From: a virus
Length of the DNA stretch: 64,000 bases
Direction: 5' to 3' (one strand)
IMG/VR virus record: IMGVR_UViG_3300008262_000018
Coordinates: 57,097-121,096 of that record
Made by a program: the position numbers and the translations under genes. Positions 37,929 to 58,416 of the stretch are shown piece after piece. Position 1 is the first letter of the stretch. Every line of letters begins with the position of its first letter. The notes below the pieces were generated by a model. The model did not search any database, had not been told where the DNA came from, and saw nothing but the letters and a program-made list of their open reading frames with translations.

Positions 37929-39302
37929 ATGTACAACGATCCACAAATATTATATCTTCTTAAGAATATAAACAGACAAATCTGTTGTATTAATGGAGGT
38001 GATGCTCCTACTACACCAACAGAAATTACCTTTGCTCCATCTACATCTCAAGATTCTTTTGGAAGACTTAGAGTATCTGAGCCTTTTACAATGTTTGATT
38101 CTAGTCATAGATTTGATGACAATGATCTTTGGTCTACAGCTGTTAATGGAGGCACAGCTACATTTAATGCTAACCAAGGACTTGTAGACTTAACTGTTAC
38201 AAGGTCAGCTGATATAATAACTCCTAATTATGTTATTAGAGAAACAAATAAAGTGTTCTCTTACCAACCAGGTAAGTCACTTCTCACTTTAAATACATTT
38301 GTTTTCAATCCTGCTCAAGCTGGTCTTAGACAGAGAGTGGGATATTTTCGTGAAAATGGAATAATAGGGGGTGGAGTGATTACACAATCTAATGGTTTTT
38401 ATTTACAATTAGCAGATAAAAGCTTTGCAGGAGGTACTGTAAATACACTTAGTTTTGTTAAAGCTAGCACTGTAACAGGAACACCTGTATATACAGAAGT
38501 TAACCAAGCAGATTGGAATGGTGATAAGCTTGATGGAACAGGTCCTTCAGGACTCACTCTTGACATCACTAAAGCACAAATTCTTTGGATGGATATGGAG
38601 TGGTTAGGAGTGGGATCTGTAAGAATGGGATTTGTTATTAATGGACAATTTATTCTTTGTCACACATTTCATCATGCTAACATCATAACTTCTACATACA
38701 TTACAACTGCTTCACTACCACTGCGTTATGATATAATCACTACATCTGGTGCAGGTGGAACAGCTACATTAAAGCAAATTTGTTCTACAGTGATATCAGA
38801 AGGTGGGTATGAACTTAGAGGTAAACAGCAGTCTATTGGTAGACCTATCACTGCACCAATGACATTTGCTGTAGCAGGTACATACTATCCAGTTGTAGGA
38901 ATAAGACTTAAATCTACAAGACTAGATGCTATTGTAATTGCAACAGCTATTTCTCTCATAGGACTTGGTAATGGTAAAAACTATCAATGGAGAGTGGTGA
39001 ATGGCAATGTAGCAATTTCTGGAGGAAGTTGGGTGCCTGCTGGTGGTGATTCTGCTGTAGAATATAATATTACAGGAACAAGTGCTACAGGTGGGAGAGT
39101 GTTAGCTAGTGGATATGTTAACTCCTCTAACCAAGGATCTCCTAGTATAAACATCCTTAAAGAAGCTCTTTTTTCTAACCAGCTTGAGAGAGACGCTTTA
39201 TCAGGTGTTCCTTATGAGCTTGTTATAGAAATGGCTATTGATGCAGTGGGAGGAGTGTTAGGTGCTTATGCTTCTATAGATTGGGAGGAAATTAGTAGAT
39301 AA
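37929..39302 (+). CDS. Tail/baseplate-associated fibre protein (QDSFGRLRVSEPFTMFD type)
   Basis: A 457-aa protein. The N-terminus MYNDPQILYLLKNINRQICC carries the short tag shared with the genes at 39310 and 40364. Residues 42-62 read SQDSFGRLRVSEPFTMFDSS, a motif found in many phage fibre or adsorption proteins, followed by long beta-rich stretches typical of jelly-roll fibre domains. A structural, host-binding role is likely. Confidence 0.82.
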   Translation: MYNDPQILYLLKNINRQICCINGGDAPTTPTEITFAPSTSQDSFGRLRVSEPFTMFDSSHRFDDNDLWSTAVNGGTATFNANQGLVDLTVTRSADIITPNYVIRETNKVFSYQPGKSLLTLNTFVFNPAQAGLRQRVGYFRENGIIGGGVITQSNGFYLQLADKSFAGGTVNTLSFVKASTVTGTPVYTEVNQADWNGDKLDGTGPSGLTLDITKAQILWMDMEWLGVGSVRMGFVINGQFILCHTFHHANIITSTYITTASLPLRYDIITTSGAGGTATLKQICSTVISEGGYELRGKQQSIGRPITAPMTFAVAGTYYPVVGIRLKSTRLDAIVIATAISLIGLGNGKNYQWRVVNGNVAISGGSWVPAGGDSAVEYNITGTSATGGRVLASGYVNSSNQGSPSINILKEALFSNQLERDALSGVPYELVIEMAIDAVGGVLGAYASIDWEEISR

Positions 39303-43586: not shown

Positions 43587-44741
43587 TTAAAAATCGTGTT
43601 GAGCATTAATAGCTTGGTTTGCACCATTTTCTATTTCAGCATTAATAAACAAAGTGTCAAACTCACCATTATCAAGCTTACTCTTGTATGATGGATGATT
43701 ATTAAGTATGTAGGACATAGATGTTTCTATTTCCATCACTTGAGATTCATCAAGTTGACCTCGTGTAGCATACATATTAATCAAGCTTTCAATTTCTGCA
43801 ATTGCAAGTTCAAGTTGCTCAGAAGTTGTATAACTATGTAGCATCTCTACTTTATTAACAACAGCTTTCATTTCTGCATTCATAAGTTTGCTGGAAAGTT
43901 CACTACCTGCTGTAGAGTTAATCATAATCTGTGCAGTTTTAACAAGAGCTTTGTCTACACTTATATCCCAGATATAGCTAATAGATTTAGCCAACATAGG
44001 AACAAATGTCAAAGTTCTATCTGAACTGCTTTGATAACCCACTTCTAGATATTTCTCAAGCTTGTTTGTAGGAATCTCAATAGCTGCTATTTCATCTTTG
44101 TTAGGAATACTAATGTCAAACTTCTCACGATAATCACGCGTTCCTTTTTGATAATACTTACTCATTTCACCTGCAGATACTCTACTTACATTCATCTTAA
44201 GAATAAATCTATCCCAGAATGGAGAATCCACCTCATCTTTTGGAATATCATTACAAGTAGCTACAAATAGTTTCCATTTACAAGGAATTTTATGTTTACC
44301 GTTAAAAAGAAACTTCTCGTTCATAACACCAAGCATTGCATTACGAATAGCAGAACTAGCTTTATCTACCTCGTTAATAATTACAATCTCAGCATCAGCT
44401 ATTGGTGCGTGCACTTCATACTTGTTTTCTGTAAATAACTTACCAAGATCTGGCATACCTTTAATCTCTGATGCCTTGGTTCCTTCATCAGTTTCTAAGA
44501 TGTACATTTTATTAGCAAAGTCTTCAGCTGTCATCTTACCATCTTTATTTAACCATGCTTTAGCATATTCTATGATAGTCTTGGTTTTAGCAACACCTGG
44601 TGCACCTATTAGTAAACATGGTAATCCTGTAGATTCTGCTAATGCTAACATTTTAAATACTTCTTCCTTATTAATCAAGGAAGTTTCAATTGTTCTTGTT
44701 TCTAATGCTTTACGTTTTGTAATAGATTTTGTTCTAGCCAT
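43587..44741 (-). CDS. MoxR-type AAA+ ATPase (pair 1)
   Basis: A 384-aa ATPase when started at MARTKSITKRKALE (44741), 10 nt after the preceding gene; the open frame extends further but overlaps that gene. Walker A is GAPGVAKT (about residues 46-53), Walker B VIINEVDKAS, sensor 1 FVATCND, and an arginine-finger-like SPFWDRF. MoxR ATPases are chaperones that insert metals or remodel complexes together with VWA partners; that partner is encoded directly downstream. Confidence 0.9.
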   Translation of the reverse strand: MARTKSITKRKALETRTIETSLINKEEVFKMLALAESTGLPCLLIGAPGVAKTKTIIEYAKAWLNKDGKMTAEDFANKMYILETDEGTKASEIKGMPDLGKLFTENKYEVHAPIADAEIVIINEVDKASSAIRNAMLGVMNEKFLFNGKHKIPCKWKLFVATCNDIPKDEVDSPFWDRFILKMNVSRVSAGEMSKYYQKGTRDYREKFDISIPNKDEIAAIEIPTNKLEKYLEVGYQSSSDRTLTFVPMLAKSISYIWDISVDKALVKTAQIMINSTAGSELSSKLMNAEMKAVVNKVEMLHSYTTSEQLELAIAEIESLINMYATRGQLDESQVMEIETSMSYILNNHPSYKSKLDNGEFDTLFINAEIENGANQAINAQHDF

Positions 44742-44751
44742 TGTTTTTAGT

Positions 44752-45108
44752 TTAAAGTTGTGCAAAGATGTTTGCTGCTTCGTTTGTATTACTTCCCATT
44801 TTTGTGTTGTTGTCATCCAATGATACCATTGGTTGTTCCAAAATTTCTGTTGACCTAACAACTCTTTGTTGTTTGGGGGATAAGGAGGTTGATTCATCAA
44901 TATCATCAATTACGTTAAAAATAGTAATGTTTGTTTCTAAGTCTTTAAGCTTAGGATGTTTTCTGATAGCTGCAATTTGTACAGCATTTGCTCCATATTT
45001 ATTTTCTATACTGCCATATCCTAGGTTATCTTTTTCTAACCATGTATATCCTTGGTCTAATAACTCTTTAATTTGACTTACATATACGTCTACTTTGTTA
45101 ACTGCCAT
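44752..45108 (-). CDS. Hypothetical protein upstream of the MoxR gene
   Basis: A 118-aa protein, MAVNKVDVYVSQIKELLDQG at the start, with a likely helical N-terminal domain (DNLGYGSIENKYGANAVQIA resembles a small helix-turn-helix) and a disordered Asn/Ser-rich end. It lies 10 nt before the MoxR start. It could be a DNA-binding regulator or a client adaptor; unproven. Confidence 0.6.
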   Translation of the reverse strand: MAVNKVDVYVSQIKELLDQGYTWLEKDNLGYGSIENKYGANAVQIAAIRKHPKLKDLETNITIFNVIDDIDESTSLSPKQQRVVRSTEILEQPMVSLDDNNTKMGSNTNEAANIFAQL

Positions 45109-52341: not shown

Positions 52342-52945
52342 CATAGTTTACATCATTTAGTTTATTAAATAAACCTGAAAATCTACCACCAACTGCTTTA
52401 TTAGAAGCTAATCCTTCACCAAAATCAGTAGATGGTATAAGATCAATCTTATCTACTAAATCGCCCTCATTGTTTATTTGTTTACCATTCCTTTCAATGT
52501 GATATACTAACACTTCGTTATCGTAGGTTGATTGAATGTTAATAAACACAGCTTCTTCTTTATTTACTTTTTCTTGGGCAATTTTAAAAGCTTCTTCTTG
52601 CGTTTTTGCTTCATCTTTAGAAACTTTTTTAACCCATACCTCTGAAGACCAAGCTAAAGCATATGGAATAAACTTTTTTTTAATTTCTTTAAATATTTTA
52701 GGAAGAACTTCAGCTATCAATTCATCTTTTGAATCACCATCTTCCATAAATGAAGAAGGAATGGGTATGTGAACCATACCCAATGCCTTTTCATCTGTTT
52801 CTTCATCAAGTTTTTCTTTCAATTCACAAAAAATAGTGAAACTTGGATAAAGTTCACCCATTTCTTGAATTGTATCTTTTACAAAATTTACATAATCGTT
52901 TTTAAGCTTATCAATAAGCTCATTTTTATCATTATCCTTCATCAT
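52328..52945 (-). CDS. Hypothetical acidic protein downstream of VWA pair 2
   Basis: A 205-aa protein when started at MMKDNDKNELIDKLKNDYVN (52945), overlapping the VWA stop by 14 nt. It has ALAWSSEVWVKKVSKDEAKT, which resembles the core of small phage or host proteins of unknown function, and an end with NKAVGGRFSGLFNKL. It is co-transcribed with MoxR/VWA pair 2, so it may be a third component or a client. Confidence 0.65.
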   Translation of the reverse strand: MMKDNDKNELIDKLKNDYVNFVKDTIQEMGELYPSFTIFCELKEKLDEETDEKALGMVHIPIPSSFMEDGDSKDELIAEVLPKIFKEIKKKFIPYALAWSSEVWVKKVSKDEAKTQEEAFKIAQEKVNKEEAVFINIQSTYDNEVLVYHIERNGKQINNEGDLVDKIDLIPSTDFGEGLASNKAVGGRFSGLFNKLNDVNYDDVG

Positions 52946-54326
52946 TTTGAAATTCGAGTTTAACAACTTTGTTTACTAAGGTACTTACCAGTTTAGAAGT
53001 ATCTTCTAAATCGTTTATTACAGTGGAGTAGCTGTAAATTTCTTTCACTCTATCATAACGTAAACCAATACCTACAGTTACAAAGCCATCACGTCTACAT
53101 CTTTCTATAACACGTTTCATTTCATCAATAGCTTTTTCTCCACCATAATTATTACCAGATGGTTGACCATCAGATACTGATATAAAAAGAATATTCTCAG
53201 AAGTTTTACTTCTAATACTATCGTATATTTTTTCTATAACAATACCATCATAGTTTTCATTAAAACTTATATGACTTTGTGCTTCAAAAACATCCTCAAA
53301 ATTCTGATTATATGGATCATGATAAATTCTTATTTCTGGATCATCATGAGATTCTTCATCACCACTATGTCCATAAATATAAATTTTATCTTTTGGTATA
53401 ATCTCAGAAAATGTTTTATATAAAATTTTAACTATAGAATGTTGATAGTCAGCATTTGAACTAAGTCTACCTGGTCTATATAAATCCATACTTCCACTTT
53501 CGTCCATAAGAATACAAACAGCAAAAGGCTTAGTAGATATATTCTCTTCCACTTTGTAATAAACTCTTGTATTACCACTATGAACTGTTGCAATTTTTGC
53601 AATATCAAGTTTACCATTGCGAAGATTATCCACTTTATCTGCTTTAGGATCAAAGCTTATATCTAATAAGTTTATAAGTCGTTTAGCAGATGCTTCTTCT
53701 TCAGCACTATACTTAACTTTCTTTTTTTCAATCTTATGCTTAAGCATGTTTACAAAATATGCTTTTTCTTTAAGTTCTTTAGCATCTGCATCAAAAAGAG
53801 TTACACCTGACTTAAATCCCTTATGTTCAAACTTTTTAGTTTCACCAATAATTTCTTCAGCTTTTTCTTTTGCTTCTTTAAGAGTCATACTTTTTGTTGG
53901 TGCCCCACTATCTTCCGATTTACTGTCTTCATCATCTACTATATATTGTATAGTGGCATCTAAAAGTTCCTTTTCATAATGATCAAACAAACTACCTAGT
54001 TCTGTATCAGATTCTTTGATGTAGTTAATAGTTCTTTGTACATCTTCTTTTGCAGGAACTAAACATTTTGATTTTATAGAAGAACCATAAAATAAAGGAA
54101 GTTCTTTTACTTCAGCATTAGCTAATAAATAATCACTTACACCAAACTCTTTAACTTTTAATTGAAATAAGTCTGCAAGTTTAGATTTAGAATTCCATGG
54201 AAGTTTAGATGCAGGATTAAAACTTGTTCTAACATCAAAACTTGTTTTTATTGTGGGAAAGTCATGGAGGATTTTTTCAAATCCCCCATATAATGACCCT
54301 TCCCAGTTTGTACTGGACCAGAACAT
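52932..54326 (-). CDS. VWA-domain protein (pair 2, CobT-like)
   Basis: A 464-aa protein. Its VWA domain starts with the MIDAS motif CILMDESGSMDLYRPG (near residue 272), then YIYGHSGDEESHDD, and SVSDGQPSGNNY with the late Asp. The N-terminal half is charged and has SKSEDSGAPTKSMTLKEAKE, a low-complexity acidic hinge as in CobT. It lies 8 nt after the MoxR/CobS-like gene, so the pair is co-transcribed. Confidence 0.88.
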   Translation of the reverse strand: MFWSSTNWEGSLYGGFEKILHDFPTIKTSFDVRTSFNPASKLPWNSKSKLADLFQLKVKEFGVSDYLLANAEVKELPLFYGSSIKSKCLVPAKEDVQRTINYIKESDTELGSLFDHYEKELLDATIQYIVDDEDSKSEDSGAPTKSMTLKEAKEKAEEIIGETKKFEHKGFKSGVTLFDADAKELKEKAYFVNMLKHKIEKKKVKYSAEEEASAKRLINLLDISFDPKADKVDNLRNGKLDIAKIATVHSGNTRVYYKVEENISTKPFAVCILMDESGSMDLYRPGRLSSNADYQHSIVKILYKTFSEIIPKDKIYIYGHSGDEESHDDPEIRIYHDPYNQNFEDVFEAQSHISFNENYDGIVIEKIYDSIRSKTSENILFISVSDGQPSGNNYGGEKAIDEMKRVIERCRRDGFVTVGIGLRYDRVKEIYSYSTVINDLEDTSKLVSTLVNKVVKLEFQNDEG

Positions 54327-54334
54327 ATTATTTT

Positions 54335-55480
54335 TTATTTAGATTGATCTAATATGTCTTCAATAGCTTTCAAACCTTCTTTGCTACCAAGACCTTTACA
54401 AATTGCATAGAAACTGTCGTAGATAGTAAACCCATCAGATACTAAATCAACAATATTTTTTAGATGTCTAATAGACAAACTAAAATTAACACGAAATTCT
54501 TCGTGAGATTGATTAATACGATTATAAATGTTTACAATAGTTTTCACTTGCTCTGGAGTAAGTGTTTTCCCGTAATTAGTAACAACTTGTTTAGTCATTT
54601 CTTCATTAAGGGGATCAACTTCTATCAAAACAAATCTATCTAATAACGCTCTATCTAACTTATGTGTACCTGTATATTGACTACCCACGTTTGCTGTAGC
54701 AATAAATACACAATCAGGATGTACTTTCACTGGCTCACAATTGTGAAAGCAATATTCCATAGGAAGCTCACGTCTAAAGTCAAGACAAGGAAACAACAAG
54801 TTATTTGCTGTTACCACTGCACGTGAAAGTTCATCCAATAGAATAATACCAGGTTTCTGTATCATCTCAGAAAATCTTGAAGGAATAAACTCACTGATTG
54901 TTTTATCATCCTTTACACTAATTGTATGTGTACCTACAAGAGACATAATAGGATCGCTCATAGTACCCATATCAAATATTGTAAGAGGAAGTCCCAACGA
55001 ATCAGCAATATTCTTTACAAGTTCTGTTTTACCTACACCTGTTGGACCAAGTAACATAGTGCTACGTCTTGCTTTTACATTAGAAAGCAAAATTTGATAT
55101 GTAGCCTTATTCACTTTAAAATATCCACCAAGAGTTACAAATCCTTCAGTGCTTATTTCAGAAACAGGAGTTAATGCTACAGGAGCTTCATATACCATTT
55201 CAAGATCACATTCTGGAGATATAGTTTCTAATGTACGCTTAAGCGTTTTAACATCTCCTGTTTTCATATTTTCTACAATATACCCATGAGTATCAATAAT
55301 TTGTCTCACTTCCTTAATATCTTTTTCTATAAATGATGATATCACTTTAGCAAGAGCAACAGGATTAGTACCCTGATGATTTACTTTTAACCACGCACGT
55401 GTTCTACGAGTGCGTTTTGCATCATCAATGTCACTTGTAATAACTTCAATCATTTCTTCTGGAGCTGTTAATTCTTCCAT
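54335..55480 (-). CDS. MoxR/CobS-like AAA+ ATPase (pair 2)
   Basis: A 381-aa protein. About 140 N-terminal residues of unknown type precede the ATPase: Walker A LLGPTGVGKTELVKN (about 143-157), Walker B IILLDELSRA, sensor 1 FIATANVGSQYTG, arginine finger LDRALLDRF. It resembles the CobS subunit of cobaltochelatase and MoxR chaperones. It is distinct from pair 1 in sequence. It could remodel a host complex with the VWA partner. Confidence 0.9.
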   Translation of the reverse strand: MEELTAPEEMIEVITSDIDDAKRTRRTRAWLKVNHQGTNPVALAKVISSFIEKDIKEVRQIIDTHGYIVENMKTGDVKTLKRTLETISPECDLEMVYEAPVALTPVSEISTEGFVTLGGYFKVNKATYQILLSNVKARRSTMLLGPTGVGKTELVKNIADSLGLPLTIFDMGTMSDPIMSLVGTHTISVKDDKTISEFIPSRFSEMIQKPGIILLDELSRAVVTANNLLFPCLDFRRELPMEYCFHNCEPVKVHPDCVFIATANVGSQYTGTHKLDRALLDRFVLIEVDPLNEEMTKQVVTNYGKTLTPEQVKTIVNIYNRINQSHEEFRVNFSLSIRHLKNIVDLVSDGFTIYDSFYAICKGLGSKEGLKAIEDILDQSK

Positions 55481-57871: not shown

Positions 57872-57900
57872 ATGTTGCTAACCTATGAAAAACACCTTAG

Positions 57901-58301
57901 TGGAGGTGAGGGGAATCGAACCCCTGTCCAAACAAACAAACAATGCATACAACGTATCACATGCTTAGTCAAGAGATAGCTTGACAACTATGTACTAAAA
58001 GTAAAGATATATCCTTACTTTTTGCACCGTAATAGGAACTAGCACGGTAATGCTCCACCACTTGATTTTATGACTATCAAGAAAACTATTACTATTTTCT
58101 GTTGCCAAGCATAGATGCTCCGTAGGATTAAGCAGCGATTGCTACTTCACCAAAGATAGAAGCTAAGATAGCTTCACCTTCTGCTACACGGTCAACATTA
58201 GATGTGCCGTTTAAAGATTGAATCATTGATTATAGAGGAATAGACCCTTACCTCTGCATGTGTACACACCTTTGATTTGCTGTCAAATCCTTGGCACCCC
58301 C
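57901..58301 (-). ncRNA. ssrA: Phage-encoded transfer-messenger RNA (tmRNA)
   Basis: The 5' end reads GGGGGTGCCAAGGATTTGAC, matching the tmRNA start (GGGGGUGACU-GGUUUCGACAG type), with ATGCAGAGG soon after. The 3' end has a T arm AGGGG-TTCGATT-CCCCT, then CACCTCC, which pairs with GGGGGTG (one G-U) as a 7-bp acceptor stem; the discriminator is A and CCA is not encoded. AGAGG...CCTCT with GGGTC...GATTC fits pseudoknot 1. The tag frame seems to resume at GGC (58206-58208) after TAAAC and runs 26 codons to TAA (58128-58130): it starts GTSNVDRVAEGE and ends FGEVAIAA. tmRNA rescues stalled ribosomes and tags their products for degradation. Confidence 0.92.
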
Positions 58302-58306
58302 ATTAG

Positions 58307-58416
58307 TAGTCAGGACAGGATTCGAACCTGTATGTCGTATCGCACCTCATTTATTAGCATTCTTGAATCAACGACTATCCCAAATGCCTTAGCGTCTACC
58401 ATTCCGCCACCTGACT
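58307..58416 (-). tRNA. tRNA-like gene, probable class II (Leu-type) with abnormal anticodon region
   Basis: Acceptor stem AGTCAGG / CCTGACT is perfect, the D arm is GCG-GAATGGTAGA-CGC, and the T arm is ACAGG-TTCGAAT-CCTGT. The 5' half matches Leu-type tRNAs (TGGCGGAATGGTAGACGC). The central 59 nt are too long: the best anticodon stem is GGCAT/ATGCT with a 23-nt loop. If 16 nt of this loop are left out, the loop reads TTCAAGA, giving anticodon CAA (Leu). It ends 5 nt before the tmRNA starts, so both are probably cut from one transcript. It may be a pseudogene, or carry an insertion. Confidence 0.65.

What the first reader, a model, noticed from the sequence alone, without database searches (positions are those of the whole stretch)
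57901..58301. Phage-encoded tmRNA with an unusually long tag
Both tmRNA ends and the acceptor pairing are clear. The tag frame, if it resumes at GGC (58206), has 26 codons ending GEVAIAA, whereas known Bacteroidota tags are about 9-10 residues ending in ALAA-type sequences (established knowledge). A phage tmRNA may replace or redirect host trans-translation; the altered end (AIAA) may change recognition by ClpXP.
Basis: partly seen in the sequence, partly recalled or inferred. Interest (0 to 1): 0.82.

Follow-up and report, generated by a model that had tools for sequence, protein, structure and literature searches.

The report
Phage tmRNA with long swappable tag
This virus of (probably) Bacteroidota bacteria carries its own ribosome-rescue RNA, which would add a 26-residue tag to unfinished proteins instead of the 9-10 residues its host's kind uses; related phages keep the same kind of long tag, and close relatives carry different versions of it in otherwise matching genes.

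Summary
Window 57898-58301(-) is a one-piece tmRNA: RF00023 at 90.8 bits (cut-off 47), ARAGORN, an acceptor stem with the alanine G3-U70 pair, and a resume motif UAAAC exactly before GGC (58206-58208). The 26-residue tag GTSNVDRVAEGEAILASIFGEVAIAA is supported by comparison: 43 related phage tmRNA genes (38 distinct tags) keep long tags, about 22-27 residues, in three classes with a hydrophobic core, and the core is under purifying selection as a peptide (class A: pS 0.32, pN 0.05). Resumption at the late GGT is disfavoured. All 52 Bacteroidota tags read here are 9-10 residues; the class-A core was found in no tmRNA of 84,980 prokaryote genomes. Close relatives carry different tag classes on matching backbones: the window and L182 are 98% identical up to the resume codon, then differ inside the tag, so the tag ORF behaves like an exchangeable cassette. 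Cultured Flavobacterium psychrophilum phages (29 records) hold an unannotated tmRNA with a predicted 35-residue tag. No SmpB is encoded, so host SmpB must serve. Phage tmRNAs are known; conserved, exchangeable long tags appear to be a new variant. The role of the extra residues is inferred, not shown.

The parts
57898..58301 (-). one-piece tmRNA gene (5' end at 58301; A73 at 57901, C74 at 57900, CCA not encoded)
   Evidence: RF00023 90.8 bits; ARAGORN
58295..58301 (-). acceptor stem, 5' strand GGGGGUG
   Evidence: pairs with 57902-57908, G3-U70; acceptor pairs co-vary in relatives while G3-U70 stays in 42 of 43
57902..57908 (-). acceptor stem, 3' strand CACCUCC
   Evidence: as above
58209..58213 (-). 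resume motif UAAAC just before the first tag codon
   Evidence: read from sequence; TAAAC is the commonest -5..-1 word in relatives; compare UAGUC in E. coli (PMC2481249)
58128..58208 (-). tag reading frame, 26 codons plus UAA: GTSNVDRVAEGEAILASIFGEVAIAA
   Evidence: frame conserved
58191..58208 (-). tag codons 1-6 (GTSNVD), resembling the start of class C tags (DNTNVE)
   Evidence: alignment of window with L182 and L174
58152..58190 (-). class-A tag core RVAEGEAILASIF
   Evidence: conserved peptide, pS 0.316, pN 0.047
58128..58151 (-). tag C-terminus GEVAIAA and stop
   Evidence: 34 of 38 distinct tags end in AA

Best explanation
It is a working one-piece tmRNA of a crAss-related phage that most likely infects a Bacteroidota host. 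Host AlaRS charges it (G3-U70 shown, charging inferred), the host CCA-adding enzyme finishes the 3' end (CCA not encoded), and host SmpB carries it to stalled ribosomes (no SmpB found in the phage; inferred). Translation resumes at GGC 58206-58208, set by the UAAAC motif, and adds 26 residues. The tag has two parts: a generic C-terminal small-hydrophobic-AA end that should feed ClpXP, and a conserved extension with a hydrophobic core (RVAEGEAILASIF here) that I infer is a second recognition element, for a host or phage factor that handles tagged proteins during infection. Discrete versions of this element sit in closely similar tmRNA backbones of close relatives, as if exchanged by recombination. 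Shown: gene, frame, conservation, peptide-level selection, mosaicism. Inferred: charging, tagging, proteolysis, the role of the extension.
For: RF00023 score and full-length match; G3-U70 kept in 42 of 43 genes while other acceptor pairs co-vary; UAAAC motif before GGC; 25 of 25 pattern hits in viral contigs lie in the same tag frame; pS 0.316 against pN 0.047 in the class-A core, third-position excess p 0.005; 34 of 38 tags end AA; class-A core in no tmRNA of 84,980 genomes; Bacteroidota tags 9-10 residues, 52 of 52; window and L182 98% identical before the tag, different tag class, similar again after it; tag class does not follow TerL kinship.
Against: No expression, charging or tagging data. 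No adaptor or receptor for the extension was identified; neighbouring genes give no clear candidate. Four class C tags end LELA, not AA, so the ClpXP step may not hold for all. tmRNA is patchy among relatives (9 of 50 contigs, many fragments). Host inferred, not known.
Confidence: 0.62

Rival explanations
1. Resumption occurs at the late GGT, giving a short tag GEVAIAA; the upstream codons are an untranslated spacer.
For: GEVAIAA alone would look like a usual short tag; Bacteroidota tags are 9-10 residues.
Against: Late GGT is preceded by UCUUU, without the A that E. coli needs at -4 (PMC2481249); the upstream frame is open and conserved as peptide in relatives; the late codon is GCT, CAG or TAC in relatives.
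Confidence: 0.04
2. The long tag is an ordinary degradation tag and the extension is a tolerated spacer inherited with the RNA, with no function of its own beyond the C-terminal degron.
For: 34 of 38 tags end AA; the tag sequence of E. coli tmRNA can be changed with little effect on rescue (stated in PMC2481249).
Against: The core is the most conserved part of the tag, under purifying selection, and is shared by phages whose TerL is only 30% identical.
Confidence: 0.2
3. Passive carriage or rescue backup: the phage tmRNA serves only to keep ribosomes free when host ssrA is limiting, and tag differences reflect drift and recombination.
For: Patchy presence in relatives; proposed for other phage tmRNAs (PMC9004378).
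Against: Drift does not give low pN with high pS in the core nor a few discrete tag classes.
Confidence: 0.1
4. Decoy: the RNA titrates host SmpB or inhibits host tmRNA, as reported for the tRNA-like domain of mycobacteriophage DS6A.
For: No SmpB in the phage records, so it must share the host's; DS6A precedent described in PMC4131195.
Against: A complete mRNA-like part with a selected tag peptide, which a decoy would not need.
Confidence: 0.04

Closest known systems
Standard one-piece bacterial tmRNA (Rfam RF00023), Bacteroidota ssrA
   Same: Acceptor stem with G3-U70, T arm, resume motif, stop-terminated tag, full-length model match.
   Different: Tag of 26 instead of 9-10 residues, different tag sequence, CCA not encoded, variable middle domains with low posterior in the model alignment.
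Other phage tmRNAs (mycobacteriophages Bxz1 and others, Bacillus phage G, marine phage Melnitz, cyanophages)
   Same: tmRNA in a phage genome; listed in PMC4131195, PMC9004378, PMC11915505.
   Different: Melnitz and S-CAM1 types are permuted two-piece forms; no conserved long-tag family with exchanged tag classes was found described in the papers searched. Some mycobacteriophage tags are also long (from memory, not checked).
Mollicute ssrA (Mesoplasma florum), longer tag read by Lon
   Same: A longer tag tied to a different receptor protease (PMC9382460).
   Different: Ends NYAFA; unrelated sequence; encoded by the bacterium. Here most tags keep the AA end expected for ClpXP.
E. coli ssrA tag AANDENYALAA with SspB and ClpX sites
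   Same: Model of a two-part tag: adaptor site upstream, ClpX site at the end (PMC9382460).
   Different: 11 residues, no similarity in the upstream part; no adaptor identified here.

Membership tests
tmRNA (RF00023) | covariance model score above gathering threshold, full length | tested here: met
   90.8 bits, cut-off 47, model 1-374
tmRNA (RF00023) | alanine acceptor stem with G3-U70 | tested here: met
   GGGGGUG/CACCUCC; kept in 42 of 43 related genes
tmRNA (RF00023) | resume motif and open tag frame ending in a stop, C-terminal AA | tested here: met
   UAAAC-GGC ... GCUGCUUAA
tmRNA (RF00023) | aminoacylation, SmpB binding, tagging of proteins | not testable with these tools
   needs experiment
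tmRNA (RF00023) | partner protein SmpB encoded in the same genome | tested here: not met
   no PF01668 match in this record or 28 related records; SmpB is a bacterial partner and not defining for a phage-borne RNA
permuted two-piece tmRNA | permuted gene order (RF04321 and relatives) | tested here: not met
   RF04321 19.2 bits, gathering score 47
Crassvirales (the phage that carries it) | crAss-type TerL, portal, MCP and DFDxD RNA polymerase | tested here: inconclusive
   PHROG matches, DFDID in the 4275-aa ORF, TerL only about 25% identical to crAss phages; no tree built

The most novel reading that the evidence does not exclude
Aquatic Bacteroidota phages carry tmRNAs whose long tags are exchangeable cassettes: each class holds an internal peptide signal, read by a specific host or phage factor, that gives proteins rescued during infection a fate different from host ssrA tagging, and phages swap the cassette while keeping the RNA backbone.
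Probability: 0.3. Interest if true: 0.85.

Novelty: new variant of a known kind. Interest (0 to 1): 0.64.

Why it matters
Why phages carry tmRNA is an open question. A long, peptide-conserved and apparently recombining tag, not found in bacterial chromosomes, suggests that in these phages the tag itself is selected and not only ribosome rescue. The question becomes testable because cultured Flavobacterium phages carry an unannotated RNA of the same kind. Such tags might also serve as degradation tags in Bacteroidota.

Tried and rejected
Late GGT resumption (rejected by motif and comparison). Host-derived tag: a genome-wide scan for the class-A core gave 34 hits, none in a tmRNA; classes B and C were not scanned. 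Phage SmpB: none in 29 records. A tmRNA-linked adaptor: neighbours are a winged-helix replication-type protein, a ParB-like protein and proteins without matches, none a clear candidate. A first pattern for phage tmRNA 3' ends found nothing because its spacer was miscounted; corrected. The Bacteroidota promoter motif TAnnTTTG is not visibly enriched by a rough count. A DNA match of the region to phage records found only 49 bases of S-CAM1's tmRNA 3' end. The tmRNA region was not found by DNA in the nearest relatives' contigs, which are fragments.

Full report
OBSERVATION. The window is bases 57097-121096 of a 121,096-base IMG/VR virus record. ARAGORN finds one gene in it, a tmRNA at 57900-58301 on the minus strand with tag GTSNVDRVAEGEAILASIFGEVAIAA. 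RF00023 matches 57898-58301(-) over its full length with 90.8 bits, gathering score 47, E 5e-34. The permuted model scores 19.2 bits, below its threshold. The acceptor stem GGGGGUG/CACCUCC holds the G3-U70 alanine pair, and the 3' end reads A73-C74-U, so CCA is not encoded.

WHERE TRANSLATION RESUMES. In E. coli the five bases UAGUC before the resume codon set the frame; A86 is critical, a purine is favoured at 87 and a pyrimidine prevails at 89 in natural sequences (PMC2481249). Here UAAAC stands exactly before GGC 58206-58208. The late GGT proposed as refutation is preceded by UCUUU, without that A. Relatives settle it. A search of IMG/VR for DNA encoding VAEG[ED]AI[LF]A gave 25 stretches, and every one reads as a tag in the same layout. 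Among 13 distinct class-A cores synonymous differences far exceed nonsynonymous ones (pS 0.316, pN 0.047); variation is concentrated at third positions (permutation p 0.005 for class A, 0.002 for class C), and the shifted frames hold stops. Length changes near the C-terminus are whole codons. Related sequences are not independent, so these p-values are indicative only.

THE FAMILY. Relatives were found through DNA polymerase; 9 of 50 of their contigs gave a tmRNA match, 6 over the cut-off. A scan for the phage-type 3' end added more. In all, 43 genes with 38 distinct tags were read, the window's included. Class A has RV[AE]EG followed by EAILASIF or ASIIAMAF; class B has IINMAFANxRVAVAA; class C has ELSNYTVESLLAELECSELELA or DEMSTMTFEDLMSFVGADYAVAA. 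Lengths are about 22-27 residues; the start of class B and of some class C tags is uncertain because the resume motif is less clear there. 34 of 38 end in AA. All classes have a hydrophobic stretch some 7-12 residues before the C-terminus; that these stretches are homologous across classes is not shown. ARAGORN missed 11 of the 25 loci, so annotation pipelines will under-report such genes.

COMPARISON WITH BACTERIA AND OTHER PHAGES. RF00023 matched 189 of 198 Bacteroidota genomes. Among the loci fetched, with four, 52 tags were read and all have 9 or 10 residues. A degenerate pattern for the class-A core over 84,980 bacterial and archaeal genomes gave 34 hits, none in a tmRNA found by ARAGORN; this was exact pattern matching for class A only, and ARAGORN can miss long-tag genes, though none of the hit contexts reads as such a tag. 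Other tmRNAs in viral contigs, many of them prophage ones, mostly encode 8-13 residues, with a few unrelated tags of 16-25. The curated tmRNA database lists 79 phage sequences among 97,179 and gives 10 as the most frequent tag length (PMC11915505); 402 of 18,146 phage genomes were reported to hold tmRNA (PMC9004378).

TAG CASSETTES. TerL of phages with class A tags (G277, G253, G254, G005, G258), class B (G267, G041) and class C (G268, G018) is 70-86% identical to that of the window's phage, while other class-A phages have TerL only about 30% identical over part of its length. Tag class thus does not follow phage kinship. The window and L182 share 91 of 93 bases from the 5' end to the resume codon, and again the 3' end and its flank, yet their tags are class A and class C. 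The first six codons of the window's tag (GTSNVD) resemble the class C start (DNTNVE), so the window's tag itself looks like a chimera joined near codon 6. L102/L166 and L084/L170 are further pairs with similar 5' backbones and unlike tags; L089/L102 is the reverse, 95% identical tags on backbones 67% (5') and 45% (3') identical. Overall the nearest 5' backbone has the same tag class in 36 of 43 cases, so exchange is occasional. Recombination is the simplest reading; no formal test was run.

PHAGE AND HOST. TerL, portal and MCP match PHROG families; TerL is nearest to Crassvirales, Flavobacterium and Cellulophaga phages at about 25% identity; the 4275-aa ORF has a DFDID motif, which I recall as typical of crAss-like RNA polymerases. 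MCP is nearest to Leptolyngbya phage Lbo-JY46 at 28%, whose stated host is a cyanobacterium. Genes mostly lack Shine-Dalgarno sites and have an A-rich patch near -12, and a Fib_succ_major protein is present. A Bacteroidota host is likely, not proven. No SmpB is found in this record or in 28 related ones.

A CULTURED RELATIVE. Flavobacterium phage FpV4 has an RF00023 match of 58.2 bits, over the cut-off, at 81947-82361(-) where no feature is annotated; 29 F. psychrophilum phage records hold this stretch at 99% identity or more. The frame after UAAUU reads GNTNNSVVSLEDNAQVEANMNMAFSLIREDVAVAA, 35 residues, with a class-B-like NMAF...VAVAA end.

MECHANISM. Shown: gene, frame, peptide-level conservation, mosaics. 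Inferred: host AlaRS, CCA-adding enzyme, SmpB and ClpXP complete the pathway, and the extension is a second recognition element. A neutral extension, rescue backup and SmpB titration are the rivals. The finding adds a variant to the known phage tmRNAs; what the tag does remains open.

Noticed in passing
window 58307-58416 (-): tRNA-like gene directly upstream of the tmRNA (Rfam tRNA 37.8 bits) with a 51-nt stretch in place of the usual anticodon arm region; ARAGORN calls it only with a 14-nt intron in the anticodon loop. By eye leucine-like. L161, L182 and L119 have similar, partly degenerate tRNA-like elements at the same place.
   Followed up: partly
L082:1278-1592 (Synechococcus phage S-CAM1, HQ634177): Unannotated permuted tmRNA with cyanobacterial-type tag ANTSDSAANNIVAFSRSTVAA predicted by ARAGORN.
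   Followed up: no
L377:2448-2862 (Flavobacterium phage FpV4, NC_041872): Unannotated tmRNA with a predicted 35-residue tag in 29 records of cultured F. psychrophilum phages.
   Followed up: partly
3' ends of the related tmRNA genes: A73 and C74 are kept in all genes listed while the rest of CCA is mostly not encoded.
   Followed up: no
window 37929-39302 (+): Virion structural protein 58% identical to one of T4-like cyanophages, far closer than the phage's other genes are to any isolate; looks horizontally exchanged.
   Followed up: no
window 43587-44909 (-) and 52932-55480 (-): MoxR-type AAA ATPase (bpMoxR) and a neighbouring pair resembling the CobS and CobT families.
   Followed up: no
L209, L231, L223, L279, L375: Unrelated long tmRNA tags of 21-26 residues in other viral contigs, e.g. 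GETIAKLQAVGLVRTEEVYAA and GNEFDIDENFLDTASVEVGTGEVAFA; L375 lies in a 380-kb contig with a second tmRNA match over the cut-off.
   Followed up: no
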